Shown here piece by piece: positions 195 through 13,736 of a DNA stretch of 44,320 bases. Position numbers and translations under genes: made by a program. Within the stretch, counting starts at the first letter, position 1; each line of letters begins with the position of its first letter. The notes under the pieces are model-generated. The model had not been told where the DNA came from. It did no database searches and saw only the letters and a program-made list of their open reading frames with translations. Origin of the DNA: Candidatus Azambacteria bacterium (lineage in GTDB: Bacteria > Patescibacteriota > Minisyncoccia > GWC2-36-17 > M10-OD1-4); the NCBI GenBank assembly GCA_027048495.1, contig JALTWS010000029.1:1-44320 (forward strand). The letters are read 5' to 3'.

Positions 195-3100
195 ATGGTA
201 GCAATTACAAACTTAGGTAAAAATACATTATCGGCAAAATTGAGAACAATTTTGCCAAAATGTGACCGAATAGATGCAATTGTCGGATATTTTTATTTTT
301 CCGGTTTTCAAGAAATTTATAAGGAATTGCAAGACAAGCGAATTCGTATTTTAGTTGGAATGAATATTGATGAAAAGATTTTAAAACAGATTGCAAATTT
401 AAAGGAATTAAATTTTGATGACCCTCTGATATCGCAAGGTTCGGTTTCACGTTCTGGTGCATTTGAGGAATATATTAAAAACTTTGCAATTATTTTTAAC
501 GATACAGATGAGTTTGATAATGAAGAATCCATTAGGGCATTTAAGGTATTTTTAAATAAAATTAAAGATGGAACCTTGGAAATAAAAAAAACACCCGAAC
601 CAAACCATGCCAAAAACTATATCTTTCATTTTAAGCCGGAGTATCAAAATAATGGAGAGACTCCTGGTGTGGTTATCGTTGGATCCAGTAATTTATCTCT
701 TGCAGGGCTGGAAGGGCAAAAAGAGCGGAACCGTCTTTTAGAGGAGAAGCATTATTACGAGGAAGACGTACAAAACTTTGAGCGTGAATGGAATAACCCA
801 GACAACATTCTTATTACCGATATCTCTGTGGCTGATTACTTTATCAAAGAGCTTAAAAAGAAGATTTGGTTATATCAATTGCCGGATCCTCTTTTGCTTT
901 ACTATCGTGTTTTGGATGAATATTTTTCCATTGAGGAAATAGAGGGTGTCAAAATGCCGAGTGAAATTACCGGTGGTAAGTTTACCGACTTAAAATATCA
1001 GCGTGATGCAATTGAGATGGGTATTGATCGCATCAAGCGTTTTGGTGGTGTGATTGTAGCAGATGTGGTGGGATTGGGTAAATCTATCATAGCTTCTACA
1101 ATTGCACATAATCTCGGTATGAGGGCGATTATCATCGCCCCTCCACATCTTAAAACACAATGGGAAGATTACCGTGCCGAATTTCAGTTTGATGCTTTTG
1201 TATATAGTACTGGGAAAATAGCCGAAGCATTAAAGCGACATGGTAATACAAAACAAAAATTGTTAATTATTCTCGATGAGGCGCACAAACATCGCAATGA
1301 AGATACTGAAAATTATAAGCTCTTGCACCAGCTCTGTGCCGGCAATAATGTTATGGCACTTTCCGCTACACCATTTAACAATGATCCAAAAGATATCTAT
1401 GCGCTTATTAAACTTTTTACCACGCCAGGTAAGTCAACTATTAAGACAGTGGAAAATCTTAGTATCTCATTTAACGAGCTGTTCACGCGTTACAAGAAAG
1501 CTCGTCGTGACTTGCGTAATGTTTCCTCTGGGAAGGAGCTGGAAAATATAAATAGGGAGATGCGTGCTATTGCTGATACTCTGCGGATGATGATTGAACC
1601 GCTGGTGATTCGTCGTTCAAGGCTTGATTTAGCGGAGATAGATGATTATCGGGAAGATTTAGAACGACAGAATATTGAATTTGCGGATGTGGAGGAGCCG
1701 AAATCTTTGGAGTATGATCTGGGAGATTTAACTGGGCTGTATCTTGATACACTGGAACAAATTTCTCCGGAAGATGAAATACCAAAAGGTCAGACTTTTG
1801 ATGGTGTGCGTTATAAGCCGGCTTCATACATCAAAGGAGATTCCAAGTTTATTGAAAAATTATGGCAGGAGGCAGAAGGAGATGAGGAAGAAGCAAAGAG
1901 CGCCAAACAAAAATTACAACAAATTACCCAAGCACAGATAAACGTGGCTAAGTTTATGCGACGTTTGCTTGTGCGTCGTTTTGAGAGTTCGGTTGATGCT
2001 TTTCGAATCTCTCTAGATAATATGATTAACTCATCTCAGTTAATGCTGGATTGGTACCTAAAACACGGAGAAGTGCCGATTTACAAGAAGGGTGACTTAC
2101 CGTCTCCGGAGGATTTGAAAAATATGGAGCCGGATGAAGCAAAAGCAACACTTGATAATCTTGAAGGTAAGGGGCTCATACGCGTCCCCGCAACCGAGAT
2201 TAACCCAAAGTTTAAAGCTGACTTAGAGGCAGATATACAACTCTTGCAAGAGATTAAGCAAAAATGGGAAGGTGTTGCTGATCCCAAATTTGAACATTTT
2301 GTGGAGCAGTTGCGTGCCTTACTCAAGGAAAATAAGAAACGCAAGATTATCGCATTTACCGAGTTTGCTGATACGGCTGAATATGTTTACAGAAGGATAT
2401 GTGTGGAACATGGAGACATGAGGGTGTTTAAATACACTGCCGCTGATGCCGGTGAGCGAAATAAGCAAATCATCAAAGAAAACTTTGATGCCGGGCTGGA
2501 TGAAAAATTACAAAAAGACGATTTTGATATTTTGATTGCTACAGATGCAATTTCTGAAGGGTTTAACCTGCATCGTGCTGGTGTGATTATTAACTATGAT
2601 ATTCCCTACAACCCTACGCGAGTAATTCAGCGAGTGGGGCGTATCAACCGTATCAATAAAAAAGTTTTTGACGAATTGTACATTTTTAATTTCTTTCCAA
2701 CTTTTACCGGCGAGATGGAAGTTAAAACCAAAACCATCGCGGTATTTAAGAAAAAAATCATAGACGCTTTACTTGGTGATGACACAAAAATATTTACCGA
2801 GGATGAAGAACTGCAAAACTTTTTTGCCAAGCAGTATAAAGAAGAAAAAGATAGACATGATGGTAGAACATGGGATTCCAAATATCGTAATGATTGGCAT
2901 AAAATCAGGCATAATGAAGAAATAATGAAACAGGTACGCGCTATTCCGCATCGCGTGCGCATTGCCAGAAAATCAAATGTAGAAGGTGTTTTAGTGTTTG
3001 CCAAAAAGGGTGATAGTTTTGTCTTTGCTTTTGGTAAGACTCCAGGGGAAGTGGAAATTATTTCACCAGAAGTGGCACTCGAGCTTTTTAATGGTGAAAT

Positions 3101-3500
3101 TGATAAAAACGAAAAAGCTGCTGAGACTGATATGAATTTTGACCCAATATATCAAGTCGTTAAGCGTCATATTTTTAAAGACAATACCATTGCGCCGACA
3201 AAGACGAGTAAAAACAGGCAAGAGGCGCTTGGAAAGGTGCGTCTTCTTGGGCAGAGTTTTGCTCCCGCACGTGAATATGCCAAAGATGTAGAAAAAATAA
3301 TCAAGGAATTGGACGCTCTGCCGGTGGCGACGTTGAAAGATATAACAAAACTTGAGATTAAAAAAGACCCAGAGGCGGCATTTGAGGAAATGCAAAAACT
3401 TGTCTCGCGTGAATACATTGAAAAACTATTGATAACGGCTGACCGCGCGGGAGAAAATGGCCAACTAGTGCTGTTGTCCGAAGAGCTTATTAAACAATAA
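195..3500 (+). CDS. PLD-like nuclease domain fused to SNF2/DEAH-type helicase
   Basis: N-terminal PLD-like signature (NHAKNYIF ... VIVGSSNLSLAGL), Walker A-like DVVGLGKS, DEAH box (LLIILDEAHKH), motif III LSATPFNN, motif VI RVIQRVGRINRI. Confidence 0.9.
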   Translation: MVAITNLGKNTLSAKLRTILPKCDRIDAIVGYFYFSGFQEIYKELQDKRIRILVGMNIDEKILKQIANLKELNFDDPLISQGSVSRSGAFEEYIKNFAIIFNDTDEFDNEESIRAFKVFLNKIKDGTLEIKKTPEPNHAKNYIFHFKPEYQNNGETPGVVIVGSSNLSLAGLEGQKERNRLLEEKHYYEEDVQNFEREWNNPDNILITDISVADYFIKELKKKIWLYQLPDPLLLYYRVLDEYFSIEEIEGVKMPSEITGGKFTDLKYQRDAIEMGIDRIKRFGGVIVADVVGLGKSIIASTIAHNLGMRAIIIAPPHLKTQWEDYRAEFQFDAFVYSTGKIAEALKRHGNTKQKLLIILDEAHKHRNEDTENYKLLHQLCAGNNVMALSATPFNNDPKDIYALIKLFTTPGKSTIKTVENLSISFNELFTRYKKARRDLRNVSSGKELENINREMRAIADTLRMMIEPLVIRRSRLDLAEIDDYREDLERQNIEFADVEEPKSLEYDLGDLTGLYLDTLEQISPEDEIPKGQTFDGVRYKPASYIKGDSKFIEKLWQEAEGDEEEAKSAKQKLQQITQAQINVAKFMRRLLVRRFESSVDAFRISLDNMINSSQLMLDWYLKHGEVPIYKKGDLPSPEDLKNMEPDEAKATLDNLEGKGLIRVPATEINPKFKADLEADIQLLQEIKQKWEGVADPKFEHFVEQLRALLKENKKRKIIAFTEFADTAEYVYRRICVEHGDMRVFKYTAADAGERNKQIIKENFDAGLDEKLQKDDFDILIATDAISEGFNLHRAGVIINYDIPYNPTRVIQRVGRINRINKKVFDELYIFNFFPTFTGEMEVKTKTIAVFKKKIIDALLGDDTKIFTEDEELQNFFAKQYKEEKDRHDGRTWDSKYRNDWHKIRHNEEIMKQVRAIPHRVRIARKSNVEGVLVFAKKGDSFVFAFGKTPGEVEIISPEVALELFNGEIDKNEKAAETDMNFDPIYQVVKRHIFKDNTIAPTKTSKNRQEALGKVRLLGQSFAPAREYAKDVEKIIKELDALPVATLKDITKLEIKKDPEAAFEEMQKLVSREYIEKLLITADRAGENGQLVLLSEELIKQ

Positions 3501-3502
3501 AT

Positions 3503-6500
3503 ATGTCGGAAATAGAACCAACATTTTTTCAAGAACCATATCAAAGAGAAAAATTTTTGACCTTTTTGGTGTCGTTTTTGCCTGAAGATTTTTCTATTAA
3601 AGAAGAAGATTTTTATAAACCTGATAAATACAAAACCATCACTGATTCTTATCGTATCGGTCAAGTTCCAAGCTTGGATTTAAGTGTTATTGAAATTACA
3701 CATAATACCAAAGATGCACGTATTGCGATCGCTACCGATGCTTTTAAATTAATGGCGGACAATTGGATACATCGGGCTTTGATTATATTTAAAAATGACA
3801 CAGACAATTACCGTTTTTCGTACCTTACTATTAAACTTGACGAAAACAGTAAAGGAAAAGTTGTACATACTTACTCAAATCCGCGTCGTTATTCTTTTTT
3901 CTTGGGGGCGGATGCAAAAATAAACACTCCATATCAACAACTTATTAAAAGTGGAAGGGTAAAAGATATAGACGATCTCCAGAATCGCTTTTCTCTTGAA
4001 GTAGTTAATAAAGAATTTTATAAACAGCTTGTCGGGTTCTTTAATGAATTGGTGAAAAAAGAGACAGGCGCGATGCAACTTCCCGAAGAGCAGAACGATG
4101 ATGTTCGCAAGCATTTTGTGGTGCGTCTCATAGGACGAATCATCTTCACTTGGTTTTTGAAACAAAAGTCCTCGCCCAAAGGGCAATTGGTGCCGGATGA
4201 AATTCTTTCATCAAAGGCGGTAGCTGCAGAAAAATATGTTGGTGGATATTATCATGATCGTTTAGAGCGACTCTTCTTTGAGCTTTTAAATACACCGATT
4301 GATAGACGAAATTTACGCAATGATTTGTTTGACCTTGTTCCATACCTTAACGGAGGACTTTTTTCACCACATAGCGATGATTTTTATAAACTCAATCAAA
4401 ATACCGGCTATTCCGAATACCTCAATACCCTTAAAATTTCCGATGATTGGTTTGCTCGTTTTTTTGAATTTTTAGAGACGTATAACTTTACCATTGATGA
4501 AAACACCGCTTTTGATCAAGATCTTTCCATTGACCCGGAAATGCTTGGCCGTATTTTTGAAAATCTCTTGGCTGAAATTGATGAGGATACCGGCGAAAGT
4601 GCCCGGAAGGCAACCGGAAGCTTTTATACACCGCGCGAGATTGTAGAATATATGGTGGATGAGTCGCTTTTAGCATATTTTAAAGAAAAAACAGATATCG
4701 CTGAGGATAAATTAAAAGCACTCATTAGTTACGACCGTGATGATGACAAAGAACACCCCTTGGAAGATGGTGATAAAAGAAAAATTATTGATGCAGTGGC
4801 GGAATTAAAAACTCTGGATCCGGCATGCGGTTCTGGGGCTTTCCCAATCGGAATGTTACAGAAACTTGTTTATATTTTATATGTGGTGGATGAAGAAGGT
4901 GTTTTATGGCGAGCAAAACGGCTTGAGAATGTGGCGCCGATTTACCGGCAAAGCATAGAGGCGGAGTTTGACTCACAAACAAAAAACTATATCCGTAAAA
5001 TAGAGCTGATTGAAAAATCAATTTATGGTGTTGACATACAGCCGATTGCCACAGAAGTTGCTCGCTTGCGGACATTCCTTACACTCATTGTTGACGAAGA
5101 AATAAACGACAACAAAGAAAATCGTGGCATCAAACCGTTGCCGAATCTGGAATTTAAATTTGTCTCCGCCAACACTTTGATTCCACTACCAGAGAGCAAT
5201 AGCCAGACTTTATTTGATGACAAAGAAGGGATTAAAAAACTTTCGGAAATTATGGCAGAATACTTTAGCAGTAGAGACAAAGAATCAGTAAAAGTAAAAT
5301 TCCAGCAAGTCCAGAAACAAATATTCCAACACATGATTCAAATCGGCCACGCAGCTGACCTAACTCAAAAACTTGCAACATGGGACCCATTTTCTGACGA
5401 AAGTGTGGGTTGGTTTGACCCCAAATGGATGTTTGGTGTTGAGGATGGTTTTGATATTGTCATCGGCAATCCGCCGTATGTGAGTTTGGAAAAAATAAAG
5501 GAAAATAAAGATATATATAAAGAGTATTACAGTGTCTTTGCGCCTCGTGGAGATTTGTATACTCTCTTTTACGAAAGGGGGCTGCAACTTGCCAGAAATA
5601 ACGGCTATTTAATTTACATAACCTCCAACAAATGGATGCGTGCCGGCTATGGTGAAAAATTACGCGGGTATTTTGCAGAGAAAAACCCACTCAAACTGAT
5701 TGATTTTGGTGGATTTAAAGTATTTGAAAGCGCCACAGTGGATACAAACATTTTACTGATCCAAAATACGCCAAACCGAAATCACCTGGAAGCTTGCCAT
5801 TTCAAAAACGACTACAAACGAGGGCAAAGTATTGCTGAGTACTTTGAACAAAATAAAGTTGTTTTAAAAAATTTGAATAGTGATACTTGGTTTATAGGCT
5901 CACATGCAGAAATTGCGTTGAAAGAAAAAATCGAGCGCATCGGTACGCCATTAAAAGATTGGGACGTAAAAATTTACCGTGGTATTTTAACGGGTTTTAA
6001 CGAGGCGTTTATTATTGATGAAGCTGTTAGGTTAAAGCTGATTGCCGAAGATCCTAAAAGTGAAGAGATTATCAAGCCACTTTTGCGTGGGCGTGATATT
6101 AAGCGGTATGGATATGAGTGGAAGGGGTTGTATTTGATAAATACTCACAATGGGTATATAGATGAGAATGGGGATAAGGTACCGCCGATAAATGTTAAGG
6201 ACTATCCAGCGATAAAAAAGTGGTTAGATCAATATTACGAGCGTCTGAAAAAGCGTACTGATAAGGGGGTTACTCCTTACAACTTGCGTGATTGTGCCTA
6301 TCTCCAAGAATTTGAAAAGGAGAAAATAATGTGGCAGGAAATGGTACAAGAAAATAGTTTCATTTTTGATAATGATGGATTTTTCTGTAATGACACTGCC
6401 AGAATAATGACAGGTGAAAATCTTAAATTCTTGCTCGCAATTTTTAATTCAAAATTATTCTTCTTCGCTATTAAACAATTTTACGGTGGTGGTGCGTTAG

Positions 6501-6739
6501 GAGCTAAAGGGATTAGAATGAAGCACACATTTTTTGAAAAATTCCCAATTCCCGAAATCACTCCTGAAAACGCTGTAATCGCCAAGCAAATAGAGCGTCT
6601 CGTGGACAACATCCTCACCGCCAAAGTCCAAAACCCCTCCGTTGACACCTCCACCCTTGAAGATCAGATTGATGAGCTGGTGTTTGAGTTGTATGGGTTG
6701 AGCGAGGAACAAAAAGTATTAGTGAAAAACTATGAGTAA
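3503..6739 (+). CDS. Eco57I-like N6-adenine DNA methyltransferase with TaqI-like C-terminal specificity region
   Basis: GSFYTPREIVEYMV, motif I LDPACGSGAFPIGML, motif IV IVIGNPPYVSLEKI, C-terminal TaqI_C-like region (IDFGGFKVFESATVDTNILLIQN). Confidence 0.9.
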   Translation: MSEIEPTFFQEPYQREKFLTFLVSFLPEDFSIKEEDFYKPDKYKTITDSYRIGQVPSLDLSVIEITHNTKDARIAIATDAFKLMADNWIHRALIIFKNDTDNYRFSYLTIKLDENSKGKVVHTYSNPRRYSFFLGADAKINTPYQQLIKSGRVKDIDDLQNRFSLEVVNKEFYKQLVGFFNELVKKETGAMQLPEEQNDDVRKHFVVRLIGRIIFTWFLKQKSSPKGQLVPDEILSSKAVAAEKYVGGYYHDRLERLFFELLNTPIDRRNLRNDLFDLVPYLNGGLFSPHSDDFYKLNQNTGYSEYLNTLKISDDWFARFFEFLETYNFTIDENTAFDQDLSIDPEMLGRIFENLLAEIDEDTGESARKATGSFYTPREIVEYMVDESLLAYFKEKTDIAEDKLKALISYDRDDDKEHPLEDGDKRKIIDAVAELKTLDPACGSGAFPIGMLQKLVYILYVVDEEGVLWRAKRLENVAPIYRQSIEAEFDSQTKNYIRKIELIEKSIYGVDIQPIATEVARLRTFLTLIVDEEINDNKENRGIKPLPNLEFKFVSANTLIPLPESNSQTLFDDKEGIKKLSEIMAEYFSSRDKESVKVKFQQVQKQIFQHMIQIGHAADLTQKLATWDPFSDESVGWFDPKWMFGVEDGFDIVIGNPPYVSLEKIKENKDIYKEYYSVFAPRGDLYTLFYERGLQLARNNGYLIYITSNKWMRAGYGEKLRGYFAEKNPLKLIDFGGFKVFESATVDTNILLIQNTPNRNHLEACHFKNDYKRGQSIAEYFEQNKVVLKNLNSDTWFIGSHAEIALKEKIERIGTPLKDWDVKIYRGILTGFNEAFIIDEAVRLKLIAEDPKSEEIIKPLLRGRDIKRYGYEWKGLYLINTHNGYIDENGDKVPPINVKDYPAIKKWLDQYYERLKKRTDKGVTPYNLRDCAYLQEFEKEKIMWQEMVQENSFIFDNDGFFCNDTARIMTGENLKFLLAIFNSKLFFFAIKQFYGGGALGAKGIRMKHTFFEKFPIPEITPENAVIAKQIERLVDNILTAKVQNPSVDTSTLEDQIDELVFELYGLSEEQKVLVKNYE

Positions 6740-7355
6740 TTTTTATGATAATCAAATACCCAAACCTGTTGATGAAGAAGATATTAAGATTGACTTATAT
6801 TATATTGGACTGGAAGAGTTGAATTTAACTGACAAGGATATAAAGAAAATAGCCGAGTTCTTCTTTTACATGTATAGTTGTTTAAATCAGAAAAGAAAGG
6901 AAAAGAATATTGCAAAAGATGCATTATCAATGCTAAAGGGAGCTGTTTCAGCATTTGGAACAAAAAAATTCAATAATATTGAATGGCGTGAGCATTGCGC
7001 TTCCTCCATTAGAGAGATTTTTCATGGTTTCTCAAATAATGGAGATTGGACACATGACTTCCAAAAAACATTTTTTGAAAATAAAGAAATTCCAGAAAAA
7101 TTAAAACCACTTATCGAATTTACGAGGTTTTATTATGGTTATTTTAGCGGGATAGACCATCATGAGCCAAACAAGATTCTTGGTAATTTTCAATCGATAC
7201 TTTTGTGTAAAGGGGAAATTGTTGAAAGGGGGAGTGTAAAATTAGAAGATCATACTAATGATGATTTCACTAAAATTGTGCAAGATTTCTTCTCAACAGT
7301 AAAGCAAATAATTTCATTTCTAATAAGTGAAGGGAAATATAGTATAAAAAATTAA
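6732..7355 (+). CDS. unknown protein, island ORF3; possibly HEPN-like
   Basis: 207 aa; start overlaps the methylase stop by 8 bp; helical prediction by eye, SSIREIFHGF segment. Confidence 0.75.
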   Translation: MSNFYDNQIPKPVDEEDIKIDLYYIGLEELNLTDKDIKKIAEFFFYMYSCLNQKRKEKNIAKDALSMLKGAVSAFGTKKFNNIEWREHCASSIREIFHGFSNNGDWTHDFQKTFFENKEIPEKLKPLIEFTRFYYGYFSGIDHHEPNKILGNFQSILLCKGEIVERGSVKLEDHTNDDFTKIVQDFFSTVKQIISFLISEGKYSIKN

Positions 7356-7357
7356 TT

Positions 7358-10300
7358 ATGAACCAATTAGAAATACATAAAAAAATAGATGAAATCGTAA
7401 AAAATAATCCTTCTGATGAAGTGGAGGAGGAGGTTTTAGAAATTGTTAATACAAATTTTGACGCGCGAAATTATTTCTTTTCTCAAGTTGATGAGCGGTG
7501 GGTTGAATGGCTTTGGGGGAATGGTTTTTTAGATATTTTAAAGAAACAACCGGAAGATACAACGCGATACAGTTACACAACACCGGAGATAAATTATTTG
7601 GTGAAAGTTGCGCCAAAGAAACCAGATTTCGCAGTGGATGAAATTATTTTAAACGGCGGGTTGGCGACCACGAAAGAAAACTTTAATCCGGAGCTTGTAG
7701 ATAGGATCTTGCGGCTTTGCGCGGAGTTGGATGCAAAGTACATCGTAAAAATTATTCCCAAAATTAAAGAAGAAAATTGGGTTAAGCTTATGGCGCCGTT
7801 TGGGCATTGGGGTTTTGAGTATGAAAAAATGTTTGAAGCTCTGTATAAGGCGGGGGAGTTTGATGCGGTAATTGAACTTGCTGGCGTTGTTTTGACCGTG
7901 AGAAGCGGTGACGAATTAAGCAAAGATACTTTTGATAAAAATCCTTTTTATATAAGAGATTTCTCGTACACAAAAGTATTTGAATATTTGGAGAAAATAG
8001 AAGGTAAGCGTGGAGAGAAAGTGCTGGGATTGTTAACCAGTGTCATAAGAGAAATCGCGAATTTGGGAGAAGATGCCAAAGATTCGGTCTTTGCAAAAGA
8101 GGATATATTTTATTTGTGGGATGTAGACTTTTTTAAGGATGAATATACAGAAACAGAGCATAGAAGCTATAAGGATAGCGTGAAAGATTTGATGTTGTTT
8201 ACCGCTAAGGTTCTAAAAGATTTAATTAAAAAGGAGTGTGATAAAGATGATAAGGGTGGTGTAAAAAAGATTTTTGATGACTATATTGGGGGCTTTGATG
8301 ATGAGAAAGCAATATTGCCTGATACACGCATGACTTGGCAATTGCGCTTATTTGTATTGAGTTTGTGTCCGGAGGTGTTTAAAGATGAAATCAAAAAATC
8401 TTTGTTTAGATTGTTTGATGATGAAAATGAAAAAATAAATTTTGAAGTAAAAGGTGGGGCTGAATATGAGAGGTTACTGAAAAAATGTTTTTTTGTGTTA
8501 TCTTCAGAAGATCAAAAGCGATACAAGAAAAGAGCTGAGGAGCTATTTATACTTGAGTGTGAAGGAAAAACTGAAGAACAGCAAGAATACAGAAAACATT
8601 CCGGCGCTAGAATTTTTTGTTTGATTGGTGAAAAAGAGAAAGCAATGGAAGTTTTTGGAGTAAATTGCGATGAGATTGAAACTGAGCCGAGCACTTCAAT
8701 TAAAGTGGGTGAGGCAGGTTTTGTAGTTTCGCAATCACCTGTTCCTCAAGAAGAATTTGATAAAAAGACCATTGATGAGATTATAGAGCTTTTGCAGGGT
8801 GAATGGACGCCAAAGAAGCTAAATGAACAAAATGAAAATCAAGATTTTCATAGACCACAAAATGCTGAAGGTGTTGGCAATTTAATTGAAAATGGTGTTT
8901 TTAATAGATTTGAGAAATTTATAAAAAATGCAGAAAAATTTTTTGATAAAGATAAAATAGATGCGCATTATACTTATGCATTTTTACGTGGCGTACAAGA
9001 GGCGCTTAAAAAAGGCAAGAGGGTTGGTAGTGATGATTGGCAAGGGCTCGTAAGTTTGCTGAAAAATCTTGTAGATGCAGGTTTAAAAGGGGGTAAAAGA
9101 GAAGAAGGATTTTATGATACATGGCTAGCAAATTGGGAATCTGTTTATCGTGCAACGGCTGATGTTTTGCAGGGGTTGCTAAGTGAAGAGAATAAGGAAA
9201 TTGTAATTGGTGATTTTGGAAAATATCGGGACGATTTTCTGCACATTTTAGAGGTTTTACTTAACTACGAAGATCCAAAACCAAGTGATGAAGTGTCCGA
9301 GACGGCCAAGTCAAAAATTTCAGATGGTGGTGGGGGGAATATGGTAATAAGTGACCCTTATTCAATTGCAATAAATAGTGTGAAGGGAAGAGCTTTTCAA
9401 GCATTTTTGATGTTTGTTTATCAGGATGGAAAAGAATTGAAAGGTGAAAAGGTTAAAATTAAAGATGATGTAAAAAGTTTATATGAAGAAATATTAAGCA
9501 CTGAAAATACAAGGGCGATGATGTTTATGCACGGACATCATTTACCCACATTTTATTTTCGAGATGCAAGTTGGACAAAAGATAAATTAATTTCTTTTGT
9601 GTTTGAAAGTAGTAGCGCTGATTTAGCGCTTGCAGGAGCAGAAGGGTATTTATCGCAAAGTTTGTATAAAGAGATGTTTGAAGACGCGCATATTCGGAAA
9701 TTGTATGAGAAGTGGATTGACCTTAAGGATACACAGTATACCAATGGACAAAAACATTGGAAAAACATAGATGAGGCATTGGCTATCCACCTTGCGCTTG
9801 CTTTTATCCATTTTGGATTAGATGTGGATGTAGGGGGAGGATTTAAAGATGATTTGTTAAAGAAGTTTTGGGAAACTGAAAATCCTAATAATAAAACAAG
9901 ATATCATGAGTTTATATCGTTTATAGGTAGGAGTGTTTTAACAAAAGATCAAGTGAGCGATGAGTGGCTAGAGAAAAATGATATAGATAAAGAGAAGTTC
10001 GTTAGGTTTTGGGATTGGGTTCTTGGCAATAAGAAAATTAAAGATCCGGAGATTTTTAGCGGGTTTGGTTTTTGGATAAATCCAGAAAAAGAAATTATAA
10101 AAGATGAAATTTTAGCTGTTAAGTTAATTAAAACTCTTGAAAAATCAAAGGGAAGATTTGATTGGGATTATGGATTTATAAGAAGGTTGCCTGTTTTAGC
10201 TGATATCGCTCCAGAAGAGACATTAAAAATTATTAAGGCTTATTTACTTGATGAAAATAATAAATTAATAGATTATAAATCAAGGATTCCTATTCACGAA

Positions 10301-10447
10301 GAAGAGTACAAATCGGCTTTGGAAATAATTTATAATAAAAGTAGCTCGTATAAGCTGCGGGTCATTGATCTTGTTAATGTTTTAATTGAAAAAGGCGGTA
10401 GTGCATTTTGGAATTTAAAAAGTATTATAAAGCAAAATGAAAAATAA
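7358..10447 (+). CDS. large protein of unknown function, probably all-alpha/solenoid
   Basis: 1029 aa ORF starting 2 bp after ORF3; no recognisable Walker A or nuclease motif by eye. Confidence 0.85.
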   Translation: MNQLEIHKKIDEIVKNNPSDEVEEEVLEIVNTNFDARNYFFSQVDERWVEWLWGNGFLDILKKQPEDTTRYSYTTPEINYLVKVAPKKPDFAVDEIILNGGLATTKENFNPELVDRILRLCAELDAKYIVKIIPKIKEENWVKLMAPFGHWGFEYEKMFEALYKAGEFDAVIELAGVVLTVRSGDELSKDTFDKNPFYIRDFSYTKVFEYLEKIEGKRGEKVLGLLTSVIREIANLGEDAKDSVFAKEDIFYLWDVDFFKDEYTETEHRSYKDSVKDLMLFTAKVLKDLIKKECDKDDKGGVKKIFDDYIGGFDDEKAILPDTRMTWQLRLFVLSLCPEVFKDEIKKSLFRLFDDENEKINFEVKGGAEYERLLKKCFFVLSSEDQKRYKKRAEELFILECEGKTEEQQEYRKHSGARIFCLIGEKEKAMEVFGVNCDEIETEPSTSIKVGEAGFVVSQSPVPQEEFDKKTIDEIIELLQGEWTPKKLNEQNENQDFHRPQNAEGVGNLIENGVFNRFEKFIKNAEKFFDKDKIDAHYTYAFLRGVQEALKKGKRVGSDDWQGLVSLLKNLVDAGLKGGKREEGFYDTWLANWESVYRATADVLQGLLSEENKEIVIGDFGKYRDDFLHILEVLLNYEDPKPSDEVSETAKSKISDGGGGNMVISDPYSIAINSVKGRAFQAFLMFVYQDGKELKGEKVKIKDDVKSLYEEILSTENTRAMMFMHGHHLPTFYFRDASWTKDKLISFVFESSSADLALAGAEGYLSQSLYKEMFEDAHIRKLYEKWIDLKDTQYTNGQKHWKNIDEALAIHLALAFIHFGLDVDVGGGFKDDLLKKFWETENPNNKTRYHEFISFIGRSVLTKDQVSDEWLEKNDIDKEKFVRFWDWVLGNKKIKDPEIFSGFGFWINPEKEIIKDEILAVKLIKTLEKSKGRFDWDYGFIRRLPVLADIAPEETLKIIKAYLLDENNKLIDYKSRIPIHEEEYKSALEIIYNKSSSYKLRVIDLVNVLIEKGGSAFWNLKSIIKQNEK

Positions 10448-11033
10448 TCTAAAAAATCAAAATAATGTATATGTTTTCATTGATGCATCAAATCTTTGGA
10501 GTGCACAAAAATCAAAAGGCAGGTTTTTTGATTTTGAAAAATTAAAAAGTTTTTTAAAACAACAACATAATGCAAAAAGCATAAAAATATTCTACTATAC
10601 GGCGTATCCTGCAGAAGGAACAAGAGATTATTCATTAGATGGAAAACACAAGTTTTTTACATACCTTCGCAAAGGTCTTGGGGTTGTTGTTCGCAAAAAA
10701 GAATTGAAGCGAATTACTGTGCGTTCTGATAAGGGGGATATTATAGAAGAGAAAGGAAACATGGATGTAGAGATGACCATTGACGCTCTTCACTATAAAA
10801 ATAAATATGATATAGCAGTATTGTTTTCAGGGGATTCGGATTTTCTTGCGCTGGTAACTTATTTGAGAAATAATGGAAAAAATATATATATTTATTCTTC
10901 AAAAAATAACATATCAGAAGAATTAAGAACAGGAGGAGATGGATATATTGATGTATTGAAAATTTCAGAAGATATTTGGGGTCGTGAACTACAACACAGA
11001 GCAGGGAGAAACAAAGGAGAAAATTCGCCATAA
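10437..11033 (+). CDS. NYN-domain (LabA/DUF88-like) predicted ribonuclease
   Basis: VYVFIDASNLW, KGNMDVEMTIDAL, IAVLFSGDSDFLALV acidic motifs; start overlaps ORF4 by 11 bp. Confidence 0.9.
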   Translation: MKNNLKNQNNVYVFIDASNLWSAQKSKGRFFDFEKLKSFLKQQHNAKSIKIFYYTAYPAEGTRDYSLDGKHKFFTYLRKGLGVVVRKKELKRITVRSDKGDIIEEKGNMDVEMTIDALHYKNKYDIAVLFSGDSDFLALVTYLRNNGKNIYIYSSKNNISEELRTGGDGYIDVLKISEDIWGRELQHRAGRNKGENSP

Positions 11034-11040
11034 ACGAAAA

Positions 11041-11064
11041 GCAACCCTCCTCGCGGAAGGCTGC
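11041..11064. other. imperfect hairpin GCAACCCTCC-TCGC-GGAAGGCTGC
   Basis: 8 of 10 positions pair; immediately after the NYN gene. Confidence 0.5.
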
Positions 11065-11080
11065 CCTTGGATGTAAAACC

Positions 11081-11107
11081 CTTTCAGTTTATGGCTAAAA
11101 CTGAAAG
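11081..11107. other. perfect 10-bp hairpin CTTTCAGTTT-ATGGCTA-AAACTGAAAG
   Basis: exact inverted repeat, 7-nt loop, no following T-tract. Confidence 0.75.
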
Positions 11108-11219
11108 ACATTCTTAGTATAACAAAATTAATTCTTTAAAGTCAAATGGATTCTTAAAGGATTGTTTTGTGCCAAAATGAAGCTAAAAAATATAAAATTA
11201 AAATAAATGATTAGAAGTT

Positions 11220-11915
11220 ATGAAAACAAAAGAAGGATTATGGAAATTAAGCCCAAGTGGATTATATGGGTATACAGAATGCAAATCCTGCTTTTGGGTT
11301 GATAATAACTATAAAAAGCAAGGAACATTACCGTTGCTTTTAAATTCTGCTATGGACTCCATACTAAAGCACAGATATGACAAATACAGAAAAAAGAATA
11401 CATTTCCGCCAGAAGTTAAGGAGCTTGAAAAAGAGGGAATAATGCCATTTACAGACATTGTAAAGCTTGAGGAGTGGAGAGAGAAAATAAATTCTCTTAA
11501 AGTTATAAACAAAAAAGTTGGATATGTGCTTGCCGGCAAGATTGATGATGTTTTGCTTGAACCTGACGGAGAAACTTTAATTCCTGCAGACTATAAATCA
11601 TCTGGTAACGCTCCGGCAGAAGATAAGCAAAAATATTATCGTGATCAGCTGGCGGCATACGGATACATGTTTAAGTGTCATGGATATAAAGTGTCCAGTA
11701 GGGCTTACTTGCTTCATTATTTTCCAAAAGACAAAACAAATCCTAATATAAAAGTAGAATTTGTCGGTCATATTGATTTGGTTGATATATCTAAAATAAA
11801 TATTGAAAGAAAACTTAAAGATATAGTGAAATTATTAAATGGAAAATATCCGGGGCATAATCCAAAATGTAAAAATTGCAGTTATCATGAGGGTAGAGTT
11901 AAATATGTTCAATAA
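11220..11915 (+). CDS. Cas4-like PD-(D/E)XK nuclease superfamily protein
   Basis: GKIDDVLLEPDGETLIPADYKSS (D...DxK), downstream QLAAYGYMF, CxxC near both ends (ECKSC, CKNC). Confidence 0.75.
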   Translation: MKTKEGLWKLSPSGLYGYTECKSCFWVDNNYKKQGTLPLLLNSAMDSILKHRYDKYRKKNTFPPEVKELEKEGIMPFTDIVKLEEWREKINSLKVINKKVGYVLAGKIDDVLLEPDGETLIPADYKSSGNAPAEDKQKYYRDQLAAYGYMFKCHGYKVSSRAYLLHYFPKDKTNPNIKVEFVGHIDLVDISKINIERKLKDIVKLLNGKYPGHNPKCKNCSYHEGRVKYVQ

Positions 11916-12587: not shown

Positions 12588-13736
12588 ATGAAAAAATTGC
12601 GAAATTTTATTTTTGTGTTTGCGTTTGCTTCCTTTGCTTTTTTTGGTGTGGCGGGGAATTTGCAAGCGGCAAAGCCGTCTGATTTTGGCCTTAAAGAAGG
12701 CAATCTTATAAGCGCTATATTTTCCGATGATCCTGATGTTTATATTATAAACAACGACGGATACAAGCGCTTGTTTCTTAACGAAGAAATATTTAATTTT
12801 TACGGGCATTTGGGAGGGTTTTTCAATGTAAAGCTTGTTCCTCAAGAAGTTGTTGATTCTTTTCCCACATCCGGACTTTTCAGAAACTGTGAAGCGGACG
12901 ATCCAAGAGTATTTGGCGTTTCTGTTGAAGGCGAGGATACAGGAACTATGAGCTGGATAAATATGACAGCAGAAGAAGCTCTTGCTGAAGATCCAGATTT
13001 TTTCAAGAAAGTTTTTTGTGTGAATGATAAAGAATTTAAGTGGTATCCAAAAAAAGGAGAATTTAAATCTTTAAAAAGCGTTCCAAATTATGAGAGGAAA
13101 AAGCACAAGATAAAAGAGCTAAAAGAGAAAAAAAGAAAGATAAAAGAACATGCAAATGATGATGACGATGAATTTTACAAAAGAAATTTTAAAAATGTAG
13201 GAAAAATACTTTTGTGTCATAAGGATAAAAAAACAATCCGTGTTTCATTGCATGCTTTAAGAGGGCATTTAAGGCACGGTGATGAAATTGGCGCTTGTTT
13301 TGGTATAGTTTACGATGATGATGAAGAAGATGAAGACAAAGATGACGACAAAGAAGATAAAAAAGATCACGACAAAAAGCATGATGACGATGATGACAAT
13401 GATGATAAAAAAGAGCACGAAGATGACTATGATAACACAATAGATACAGTATCTCCTTTAATTTCAAACATTGTTGCCACAAGTACAAAAGACACATCGG
13501 TAGATATTAAGTGGGAAACAAACGAAGCTTCAACAAGCAAGGTTTATTATTCAACTTCAACTCCAGTTTTGGCAGTAAGCGCAACAAGTTTTATTGAAGA
13601 CACCGCTTTGGTAAACTCACATACCATAAATTTGACAGGACTTACAGCATCAACTACTTATTACTTTTTAGTTGAGTCAACCGATACTTCAGGAAACACA
13701 GCAAAATCTCAAGAAGGGTCGTTTACCACAAAATAA
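12588..13736 (+). CDS. secreted/surface protein with K/D/E low-complexity linker and C-terminal fibronectin III-like domain
   Basis: Signal peptide (MKKLRNFIFVFAFASFAFFGVAG); CH...LRGHLRHGDEIGAC motif; C-terminal SNIVATSTKDTSVDIKWETNEASTSKVYY...GLTASTTYYFLVESTD. Confidence 0.85.
   Translation: MKKLRNFIFVFAFASFAFFGVAGNLQAAKPSDFGLKEGNLISAIFSDDPDVYIINNDGYKRLFLNEEIFNFYGHLGGFFNVKLVPQEVVDSFPTSGLFRNCEADDPRVFGVSVEGEDTGTMSWINMTAEEALAEDPDFFKKVFCVNDKEFKWYPKKGEFKSLKSVPNYERKKHKIKELKEKKRKIKEHANDDDDEFYKRNFKNVGKILLCHKDKKTIRVSLHALRGHLRHGDEIGACFGIVYDDDEEDEDKDDDKEDKKDHDKKHDDDDDNDDKKEHEDDYDNTIDTVSPLISNIVATSTKDTSVDIKWETNEASTSKVYYSTSTPVLAVSATSFIEDTALVNSHTINLTGLTASTTYYFLVESTDTSGNTAKSQEGSFTTK

What the first reader, a model, noticed from the sequence alone, without database searches (positions are those of the whole stretch)
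195..11033. Candidate undescribed five-gene defence/restriction system
Seen: five same-strand genes with gaps of 2 bp, 2 bp and overlaps of 8 and 11 bp, indicating one translationally coupled unit. Known families: PLD-like nuclease fused to SNF2 helicase, and Eco57I-like N6-adenine methylase, both typical of restriction and DISARM-like loci; NYN nucleases act on RNA. Inference: a methylation-guided DNA restriction module is joined to an RNA-cleaving abortive arm through two unknown proteins. I see no DrmA/DrmB, PglZ, BrxC or HsdS-like gene, so it is not a standard DISARM, BREX or type I locus.
Basis: partly seen in the sequence, partly recalled or inferred. Interest (0 to 1): 0.85.

Follow-up and report, generated by a model that had tools for sequence, protein, structure and literature searches.

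The report
Restriction core with a new add-on pair
The five genes are not one system but a two-gene DNA restriction enzyme with bolt-on defence genes behind it, among them a previously undescribed two-gene add-on that sits behind at least five unrelated kinds of restriction system in tiny Patescibacteria.

Summary
The five genes, coordinates, gaps and overlaps are exactly as described. They are not one conserved five-gene system. Genes 1-2 (PLD-SNF2 ATPase and N6-adenine methylase, here A-B) are a widespread two-subunit restriction core, found in 18 of 240 sampled Patescibacteria genomes and on a Bacteroidota plasmid; most copies lack genes 3-5. Genes 3-4 (C-D) are a separate module with no match in Pfam, NCBIfam, PADLOC, PHROGs or PDB sequences. 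I found about 35 D loci, essentially all in Patescibacteria. At 23 of them D lies beside restriction genes of unrelated kinds: A-B, type III, DpnII, HaeII with C5 methylase, EcoRI-type methylase with GmrSD/HNH, and TOTE. D models as a HEAT-like solenoid; C is a fast-evolving helical protein that has been swapped on near-identical D. The NYN gene is not conserved; a PD-(D/E)XK gene just outside the finding is a better-supported add-on. Unexpectedly, orphan copies of the last 17-35 codons of the B methylase mark joins between defence modules at 12 further sites. Best model: A-B restricts unmethylated DNA, and C-D is an interchangeable second-line sensor/effector. The modular architecture is shown; the C-D mechanism is inferred.

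The parts
195..3500 (+). A: PLD-type (HKD) nuclease fused to an SNF2-family ATPase, 1101 aa; candidate restriction/translocation subunit
   Evidence: Pfam PLDc_2 3e-7, Helicase_C 6e-17, SNF2 4e-10; invariant H138, K140, N166, K296, D361/E362/H364 and R813/R816 in 6 homologues; motifs intact
3503..6739 (+). B: N6-adenine DNA methylase with TaqI-like target-recognition domain (Eco57I / type IIG-like), 1078 aa
   Evidence: Pfam Eco57I 9.5e-40, TaqI_C 1e-10; PADLOC REase_MTase_IIG 3e-162; DPACGSG and NPPY intact
6572..6736 (+). 3' end of B, the stretch whose orphan copies mark module joins in other genomes (here intact and part of B)
   Evidence: HMM of B tails: intact copy here, orphan copies elsewhere
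6732..7355 (+). C: 207-aa helical protein, fast-evolving partner of D, conserved R94 and H143
   Evidence: C families of 26 of 30 loci linked by phmmer 1e-5; alignment; AlphaFold2 mean pLDDT 77.9, pTM 0.77; no PDB fold match with E<0.1
7358..10447 (+). D: 1029-aa HEAT-like alpha-solenoid, new family; fused to C (about 1150-1208 aa) in several relatives
   Evidence: no family match; about 40% identical full-length relatives; AlphaFold2 mean pLDDT 75.4, all-helical; Foldseek CAND1/karyopherin-type solenoids
10437..11033 (+). E: NYN-domain (PIN-like) nuclease, 198 aa; local add-on, not conserved with C-D or A-B
   Evidence: Pfam NYN 2.5e-25; only other NYN near D is L058, 460 bp downstream
11220..11915 (+).
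   Evidence: Pfam PDDEXK_1 2e-10; homologues directly behind D in L037, near D in L021, directly behind B in L111, near orphan tails in L148 and L150

Best explanation
This is a modular defence locus. A-B is a two-subunit, ATP-dependent restriction-modification core: B methylates its adenine site, and A, recruited to unmethylated sites, translocates and cuts with its PLD nuclease, functionally like a type ISP enzyme split over two genes (inferred from domains). C-D is an independent add-on that was coupled in translation behind this core and, elsewhere, behind at least four other kinds of restriction system. D is a conserved HEAT-like solenoid that most likely senses an invader cue (a phage protein, DNA ends, or the blocked or active restriction complex). 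C is the interchangeable partner that delivers the effect, probably growth arrest or cell death as a second line of defence (inferred). NYN (E) and PD-(D/E)XK (F) are further add-ons. Add-ons are gained and exchanged at the 3' end of the methylase gene.
For: A-B as unit: all 12 inspected further A genes are followed by B; A 42% and B 33% identical to neighbours on a Parabacteroides plasmid, there followed by an unknown gene and a TIR gene. A-B carries other add-ons elsewhere: GmrSD, SIR2, UvrD, HEAT protein, PD-(D/E)XK, HEPN_AbiU2. C-D as unit: next to A-B, type III Mod-Res, DpnII, HaeII + C5 methylase, EcoRI-type methylase + GmrSD/HNH, TOTE, often overlapping or a few bases behind the restriction gene. 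Restriction genes are enriched within 3 genes of D against genes further off in the same loci, 31/166 vs 5/189, p=3e-7. Partner labels are scattered over the D tree (15 changes). L017 and G1023 share D at 89-91% DNA identity but differ in C and in restriction partner. C subtypes need at least 8 changes on the D tree; in L014 and L021 the C slot holds an unrelated protein with predicted membrane segments. Orphan B tails at joins.
Against: No function of C or D is shown; there is no catalytic motif in D and no fold match for C. C-D also occurs in about five loci without an adjacent restriction gene (L022, L038, L058, L060, L062). R94/H143 of C is not a canonical HEPN Rx4-6H motif. D is known almost only from metagenome assemblies. 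The restriction-gene library used for the enrichment test was partly taken from D neighbourhoods.
Confidence: 0.5

Rival explanations
1. One five-gene system: methylation-guided restriction joined to an RNA-cleaving (NYN) abortive arm through C and D.
For: Translational coupling of all five genes and intact motifs.
Against: No second locus with all five genes was found among about 35 D loci and 18 A-bearing genomes; NYN is not conserved; C-D is shared with unrelated restriction types.
Confidence: 0.05
2. PrrC-like latent toxin: C-D is a toxic pair held silent by the linked restriction enzyme and released when a phage inhibits that enzyme.
For: Known principle for PrrC/EcoprrI (PMC2610378) and proposed for HEPN genes next to restriction systems (PMC3710099); C-D is tied to many restriction types.
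Against: C-D exists without neighbouring restriction genes; one silencing contact would have to fit at least five unrelated enzymes; no RNase motif in C or D.
Confidence: 0.2
3. C-D is a helper or regulator of restriction (scaffold, assembly factor or delay device that protects the host while methylation is set up).
For: Position behind the restriction gene with short gaps or overlaps; solenoid scaffold fold of D.
Against: A-B stays intact where D has decayed (L041, L043) and in most genomes without C-D; restriction enzymes of unrelated build share it.
Confidence: 0.2
4. On the joins only: the orphan methylase tails are random deletion scars of lost A-B systems and say nothing about how modules are gained.
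For: B remnants in L066; a single hsdR relic beside rloC is known (PMC2610378). The tail DNA in intact B genes is no more conserved in codon use than the rest of the gene (0.405 vs 0.398 +- 0.053), so there is no fixed DNA site.
Against: Solid orphan tails keep only 17-35 codons, always the extreme 3' end, with sharp blocks of about 60-80 bp at 90-96% identity; several lie between two add-ons or behind a non-A-B restriction system (L115, L016, L108, L147, L059).
Confidence: 0.4

Closest known systems
DISARM (DrmD/DrmMI class)
   Same: SNF2-type helicase, N6-adenine methylase and a PLD nuclease domain; partial DrmD and DrmMI profile matches
   Different: No DrmA or DrmB, the core complex of DISARM (PMC9142583); PLD fused to the SNF2 protein; DrmD model score 142 against a cut-off of 610
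Type ISP restriction enzymes (LlaGI, LlaBIII)
   Same: Nuclease, SF2 translocase, gamma N6-adenine methylase and TRD as one functional set (PMC3874165)
   Different: Two proteins instead of one; PLD instead of Mrr nuclease; mode of cutting not tested
PLD + SNF2 proteins in PADLOC (HKD+Snf2 C3a139, PLD_Helicase, PbeA) and NCBIfam NF042964
   Same: Same domain pair in A
   Different: Low scores over part of the length (NF042964: 112 bits against a cut-off of 1100)
PrrC / RloC and HEPN genes linked to restriction systems
   Same: Accessory second-line genes linked to restriction loci; an hsdR relic next to rloC is a precedent for restriction relics beside add-ons (PMC2610378, PMC3710099)
   Different: C-D has no ATPase, no anticodon-nuclease triad and no recognised HEPN motif; it is tied to many restriction types

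Membership tests
DISARM | DrmA (helicase) and DrmB (DUF1998) core complex | tested here: not met
   No DUF1998 in the locus; genes 195-11915 assigned otherwise. Caveat: contig begins 194 bp before A
DISARM | DNA methylase and PLD nuclease in the operon | tested here: met
   B is an N6-adenine methylase; the PLD domain is in A
DISARM | DrmD equivalog cut-off (NF038317, 610 bits) | tested here: not met
   142.1 bits
Type ISP restriction enzyme | Nuclease, translocase, methylase and TRD in one polypeptide | tested here: not met
   Split over A and B
Type ISP restriction enzyme | ATP-dependent translocation and head-to-head two-site cleavage | not testable with these tools
   Needs biochemistry
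Type IIG methylase-nuclease (for B alone) | Eco57I-type methylase with TRD | tested here: met
   PADLOC REase_MTase_IIG 3e-162; Pfam TaqI_C 1e-10
Type IIG methylase-nuclease (for B alone) | Own nuclease domain in the same chain | tested here: inconclusive
   No nuclease family matched in residues 1-370 of B; a diverged domain is not excluded
HEPN superfamily (for C) | Rx4-6H motif in a helical bundle | tested here: not met
   Conserved R94 and H143 are about 49 residues apart; no HEPN fold match
PrrC/RloC-type accessory | ABC ATPase with anticodon-nuclease triad | tested here: not met
   No ATPase or nuclease family in C or D
Any PADLOC-described system (for C and D) | Profile match of C or D | tested here: not met
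   No match at E<0.1 for C and D; none for the C-D fusion of L018 at E<0.01

The most novel reading that the evidence does not exclude
The 3' end of a restriction methylase gene is a docking point at which Patescibacteria stack and swap defence modules: each incoming cassette brings its own 60-80 bp copy of the methylase tail, the old copy stays behind as an orphan between modules, and C-D is one such cassette with a conserved solenoid sensor and interchangeable effectors.
Probability: 0.3. Interest if true: 0.8.

Novelty: new variant of a known kind. Interest (0 to 1): 0.6.

Why it matters
A single accessory pair that rides behind at least five mechanistically unrelated restriction systems would be a general-purpose second line to restriction, not a part of one enzyme. 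It would show how cells with 0.8-Mb genomes build layered immunity from swappable parts. The orphan methylase tails give a sequence signature for finding joins between defence modules, and so further unknown add-ons, from DNA alone.

Tried and rejected
(1) Five-gene unit: rejected on neighbourhoods. (2) Known family for C or D: Pfam, PADLOC, NCBIfam, PHROGs and PDB sequence profiles gave none; tblastn of D in plasmids and phages gave none. (3) C as a canonical HEPN: no motif, no fold match. (4) Fixed attachment-type DNA site in the methylase tail: codon identity in intact B genes is not raised. (5) L017 as evidence that TOTE recruits C-D: weakened, because a B-tail relic sits directly before its C-D, so the pair probably came from an A-B locus. 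(6) HEAT protein L108_4 as a D relative: only a 29-column shared stretch (DPxSxAINSVRGxA), hhalign probability 19%. (7) Orphan tails outside Patescibacteria: the tail finds only two plasmid records, both under annotated methylases, so untested there. (8) The two near-identical copies in 'Sulfurimonas' and 'Flavobacteriaceae' assemblies look like misbinned contigs, not transfers. (9) Literature searches for the combination returned nothing direct.

Full report
Observation. The window is one whole contig (44,320 bp) of an 803-kb Patescibacteria-type genome that is 98.6% complete. The five ORFs, their coordinates, the two 2-bp gaps and the overlaps of 8 and 11 bp are exactly as stated. A is a PLD domain plus SNF2 ATPase, B an Eco57I-type N6-adenine methylase with a TaqI-like recognition domain, E an NYN nuclease; C and D match no family. 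Catalytic motifs of A, B and E are intact and invariant in homologues of A and B. The genome's sampled nearest relatives lack A apart from one distant class member, and D was not found in the same family or order, so the locus looks horizontally acquired.

What belongs together: A-B. A profile of A found strong matches in 18 of 240 Patescibacteria genomes. In all 12 further loci read, B follows A (split into pieces in L110). On a Parabacteroides plasmid the same pair (42% and 33% identical) is followed by an unknown gene and a TIR gene. Behind A-B the next genes differ: C-D, GmrSD, SIR2, a UvrD-type helicase, a HEAT-repeat protein, HEPN_AbiU2, or a PD-(D/E)XK nuclease. A-B is therefore a stable core with variable add-ons. 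By domain content it is a two-gene analogue of type ISP enzymes (nuclease, translocase, gamma-methylase, TRD; PMC3874165) and shares parts with DISARM, but it lacks the DrmAB core that defines DISARM (PMC9142583).

What belongs together: C-D. D has full-length relatives at about 40% identity: 7 of 287, 9 of 374, 12 of 381 and 5 of 238 genomes in four overlapping Patescibacteria samples, plus public contigs named Parcubacteria, Woesebacteria, Falkowbacteria and Liptonbacteria and one IMG/VR contig. There was no match in plasmids or phages. The scan of 84,980 species used short peptide patterns and is not exhaustive. In several relatives C and D are one protein of about 1150-1208 aa, which suggests that the pair works together. 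I count about 35 D loci. At 23 of them restriction genes lie directly beside: A-B or B in 11 (window, L014, L018, L020, L021, L037, L041, L043, L065, L066 as remnants, L078), type III genes in 6 (L012, L015, L035, L039, L059, L077), DpnII in 3 (L019, L057, L075), and one each of HaeII with C5 methylase (L061), EcoRI-type methylase with GmrSD/HNH (L063) and TOTE with a methylase (L017). Three of the other 12 are cut off by contig ends. Within the same loci, restriction genes make up 31 of 166 genes within three places of D and 5 of 189 further away (the gene library partly came from these loci).

Module exchange. On a D tree the partner labels need 15 changes, no fewer than shuffled labels typically give. 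L017 and G1023 (L078/L079), from different groups, share the body of D at 89-91% DNA identity, yet one has B and a separate C of another subtype, the other a C-D fusion beside TOTE. C proteins of 26 of 30 loci are one family, with four subtypes that need at least 8 changes on the D tree; mean pairwise identity is 23% for C and 45% for D. In L014 and L021 the C slot holds an unrelated protein with predicted membrane segments. A conserved large partner with a swappable small partner is the usual pattern of sensor and effector; that reading is inference.

Structure. AlphaFold2 gives D as an all-helical solenoid (mean pLDDT 75, pTM 0.47), matched by CAND1 and karyopherin-type HEAT proteins. The low pTM means that the overall shape is not fixed. 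C is a helical bundle (pLDDT 78, pTM 0.77) without a fold match. Conserved R94 and H143 are candidates for function, but their spacing is not that of HEPN nucleases (motif as defined in PMC3710099).

The other genes. Between E and F lies a 10-bp inverted repeat at about 11080-11108, so F may be transcribed apart.

An unexpected signature. Directly before C-D in L017 lies a relic of the extreme 3' end of a B methylase. An HMM of B tails run over all six frames of the loci found further orphan tails in L016 (two), L059, L108, L115 and L014, with weak ones exactly at the join in L040 and L077; reversed DNA gave none at E<2. A survey of 221 genomes found five more orphan tails (open frames of 20-41 aa) in L147, L148, L149, L150 and L151. 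Each lies next to or near defence-type genes: C5 methylase + DraIII-like gene + Vsr | tail | HEPN_AbiU2; GmrSD | tail | C5 methylase; Schlafen helicase | tail; a PD-(D/E)XK homologue near the tail in L150; SIR2 beside the tail in L151. The relics are short (17-35 codons) with sharp edges: in L115 the relic is 94% identical to the locus' own B tail over 63 bp, in L016 the two relics match each other over about 70 bp, and the L147 relic matches the B tail of another genome (L078) over about 80 bp at about 96%, amid unrelated flanks. Codon use in intact tails is not specially conserved, so there is no fixed DNA site; recombination within the methylase tail, or repeated deletion, are the two readings. 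A single hsdR relic beside rloC is a published precedent (PMC2610378).

Mechanism. Most likely (0.5 for the whole picture): A-B restricts unmethylated DNA; C-D is an independent second line, D sensing and C acting. That C-D is merely a control or helper of A-B is less likely, because A-B stays intact where D has decayed (L041, L043) and where C-D is absent. A PrrC-like latent toxin, silenced by the restriction enzyme, stays open, but C-D without a restriction neighbour (about five loci) and the variety of partners speak against one silencing contact. Shown: the modular architecture and the exchange of partners. Inferred: every biochemical step.

Verdict. The accessory pair and the methylase-tail joins are the parts worth following.

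Noticed in passing
L016, L017, L059, L108, L115, L014; L147-L151: Orphan copies of the last 17-35 codons of the B methylase mark joins between defence modules; 12 solid cases, with sharp 60-80 bp identity blocks where compared.
   Followed up: partly
window 11220-11915; L037 12996-13748; L021 2676-3446; L111 3-482; L148 4214-4888; L150 359-1114: A PD-(D/E)XK (Cas4/RecB-like) nuclease family recurs as an add-on behind A-B or C-D and near orphan methylase tails.
   Followed up: partly
L042, L065, L080: Distant D homologues lie near phage-type genes: a major head protein (L042), a terminase small subunit (L080), an integrase (L065).
   Followed up: partly
L108 3224-6340: A 1038-aa protein behind A-B with weak HEAT repeats shares the stretch DPxSxAINSVRGxA with D; possibly a wider class of solenoid defence proteins.
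   Followed up: no
L010, L011: Contigs identical or nearly identical to this window sit in public assemblies named Sulfurimonas sp. and Flavobacteriaceae bacterium: probably misbinned Patescibacteria DNA.
   Followed up: yes
L016, L021, L060, L062 (N-terminal parts of the C-slot proteins): Several C-slot proteins begin with a short N/T/V-rich stretch (such as SGNTVTINNFY, GKHNTVYNSPPP) of unknown role.
   Followed up: no
window 12588-13736: Secreted-type protein with a long Asp/Lys/Glu-rich linker before an fn3-like domain.
   Followed up: no
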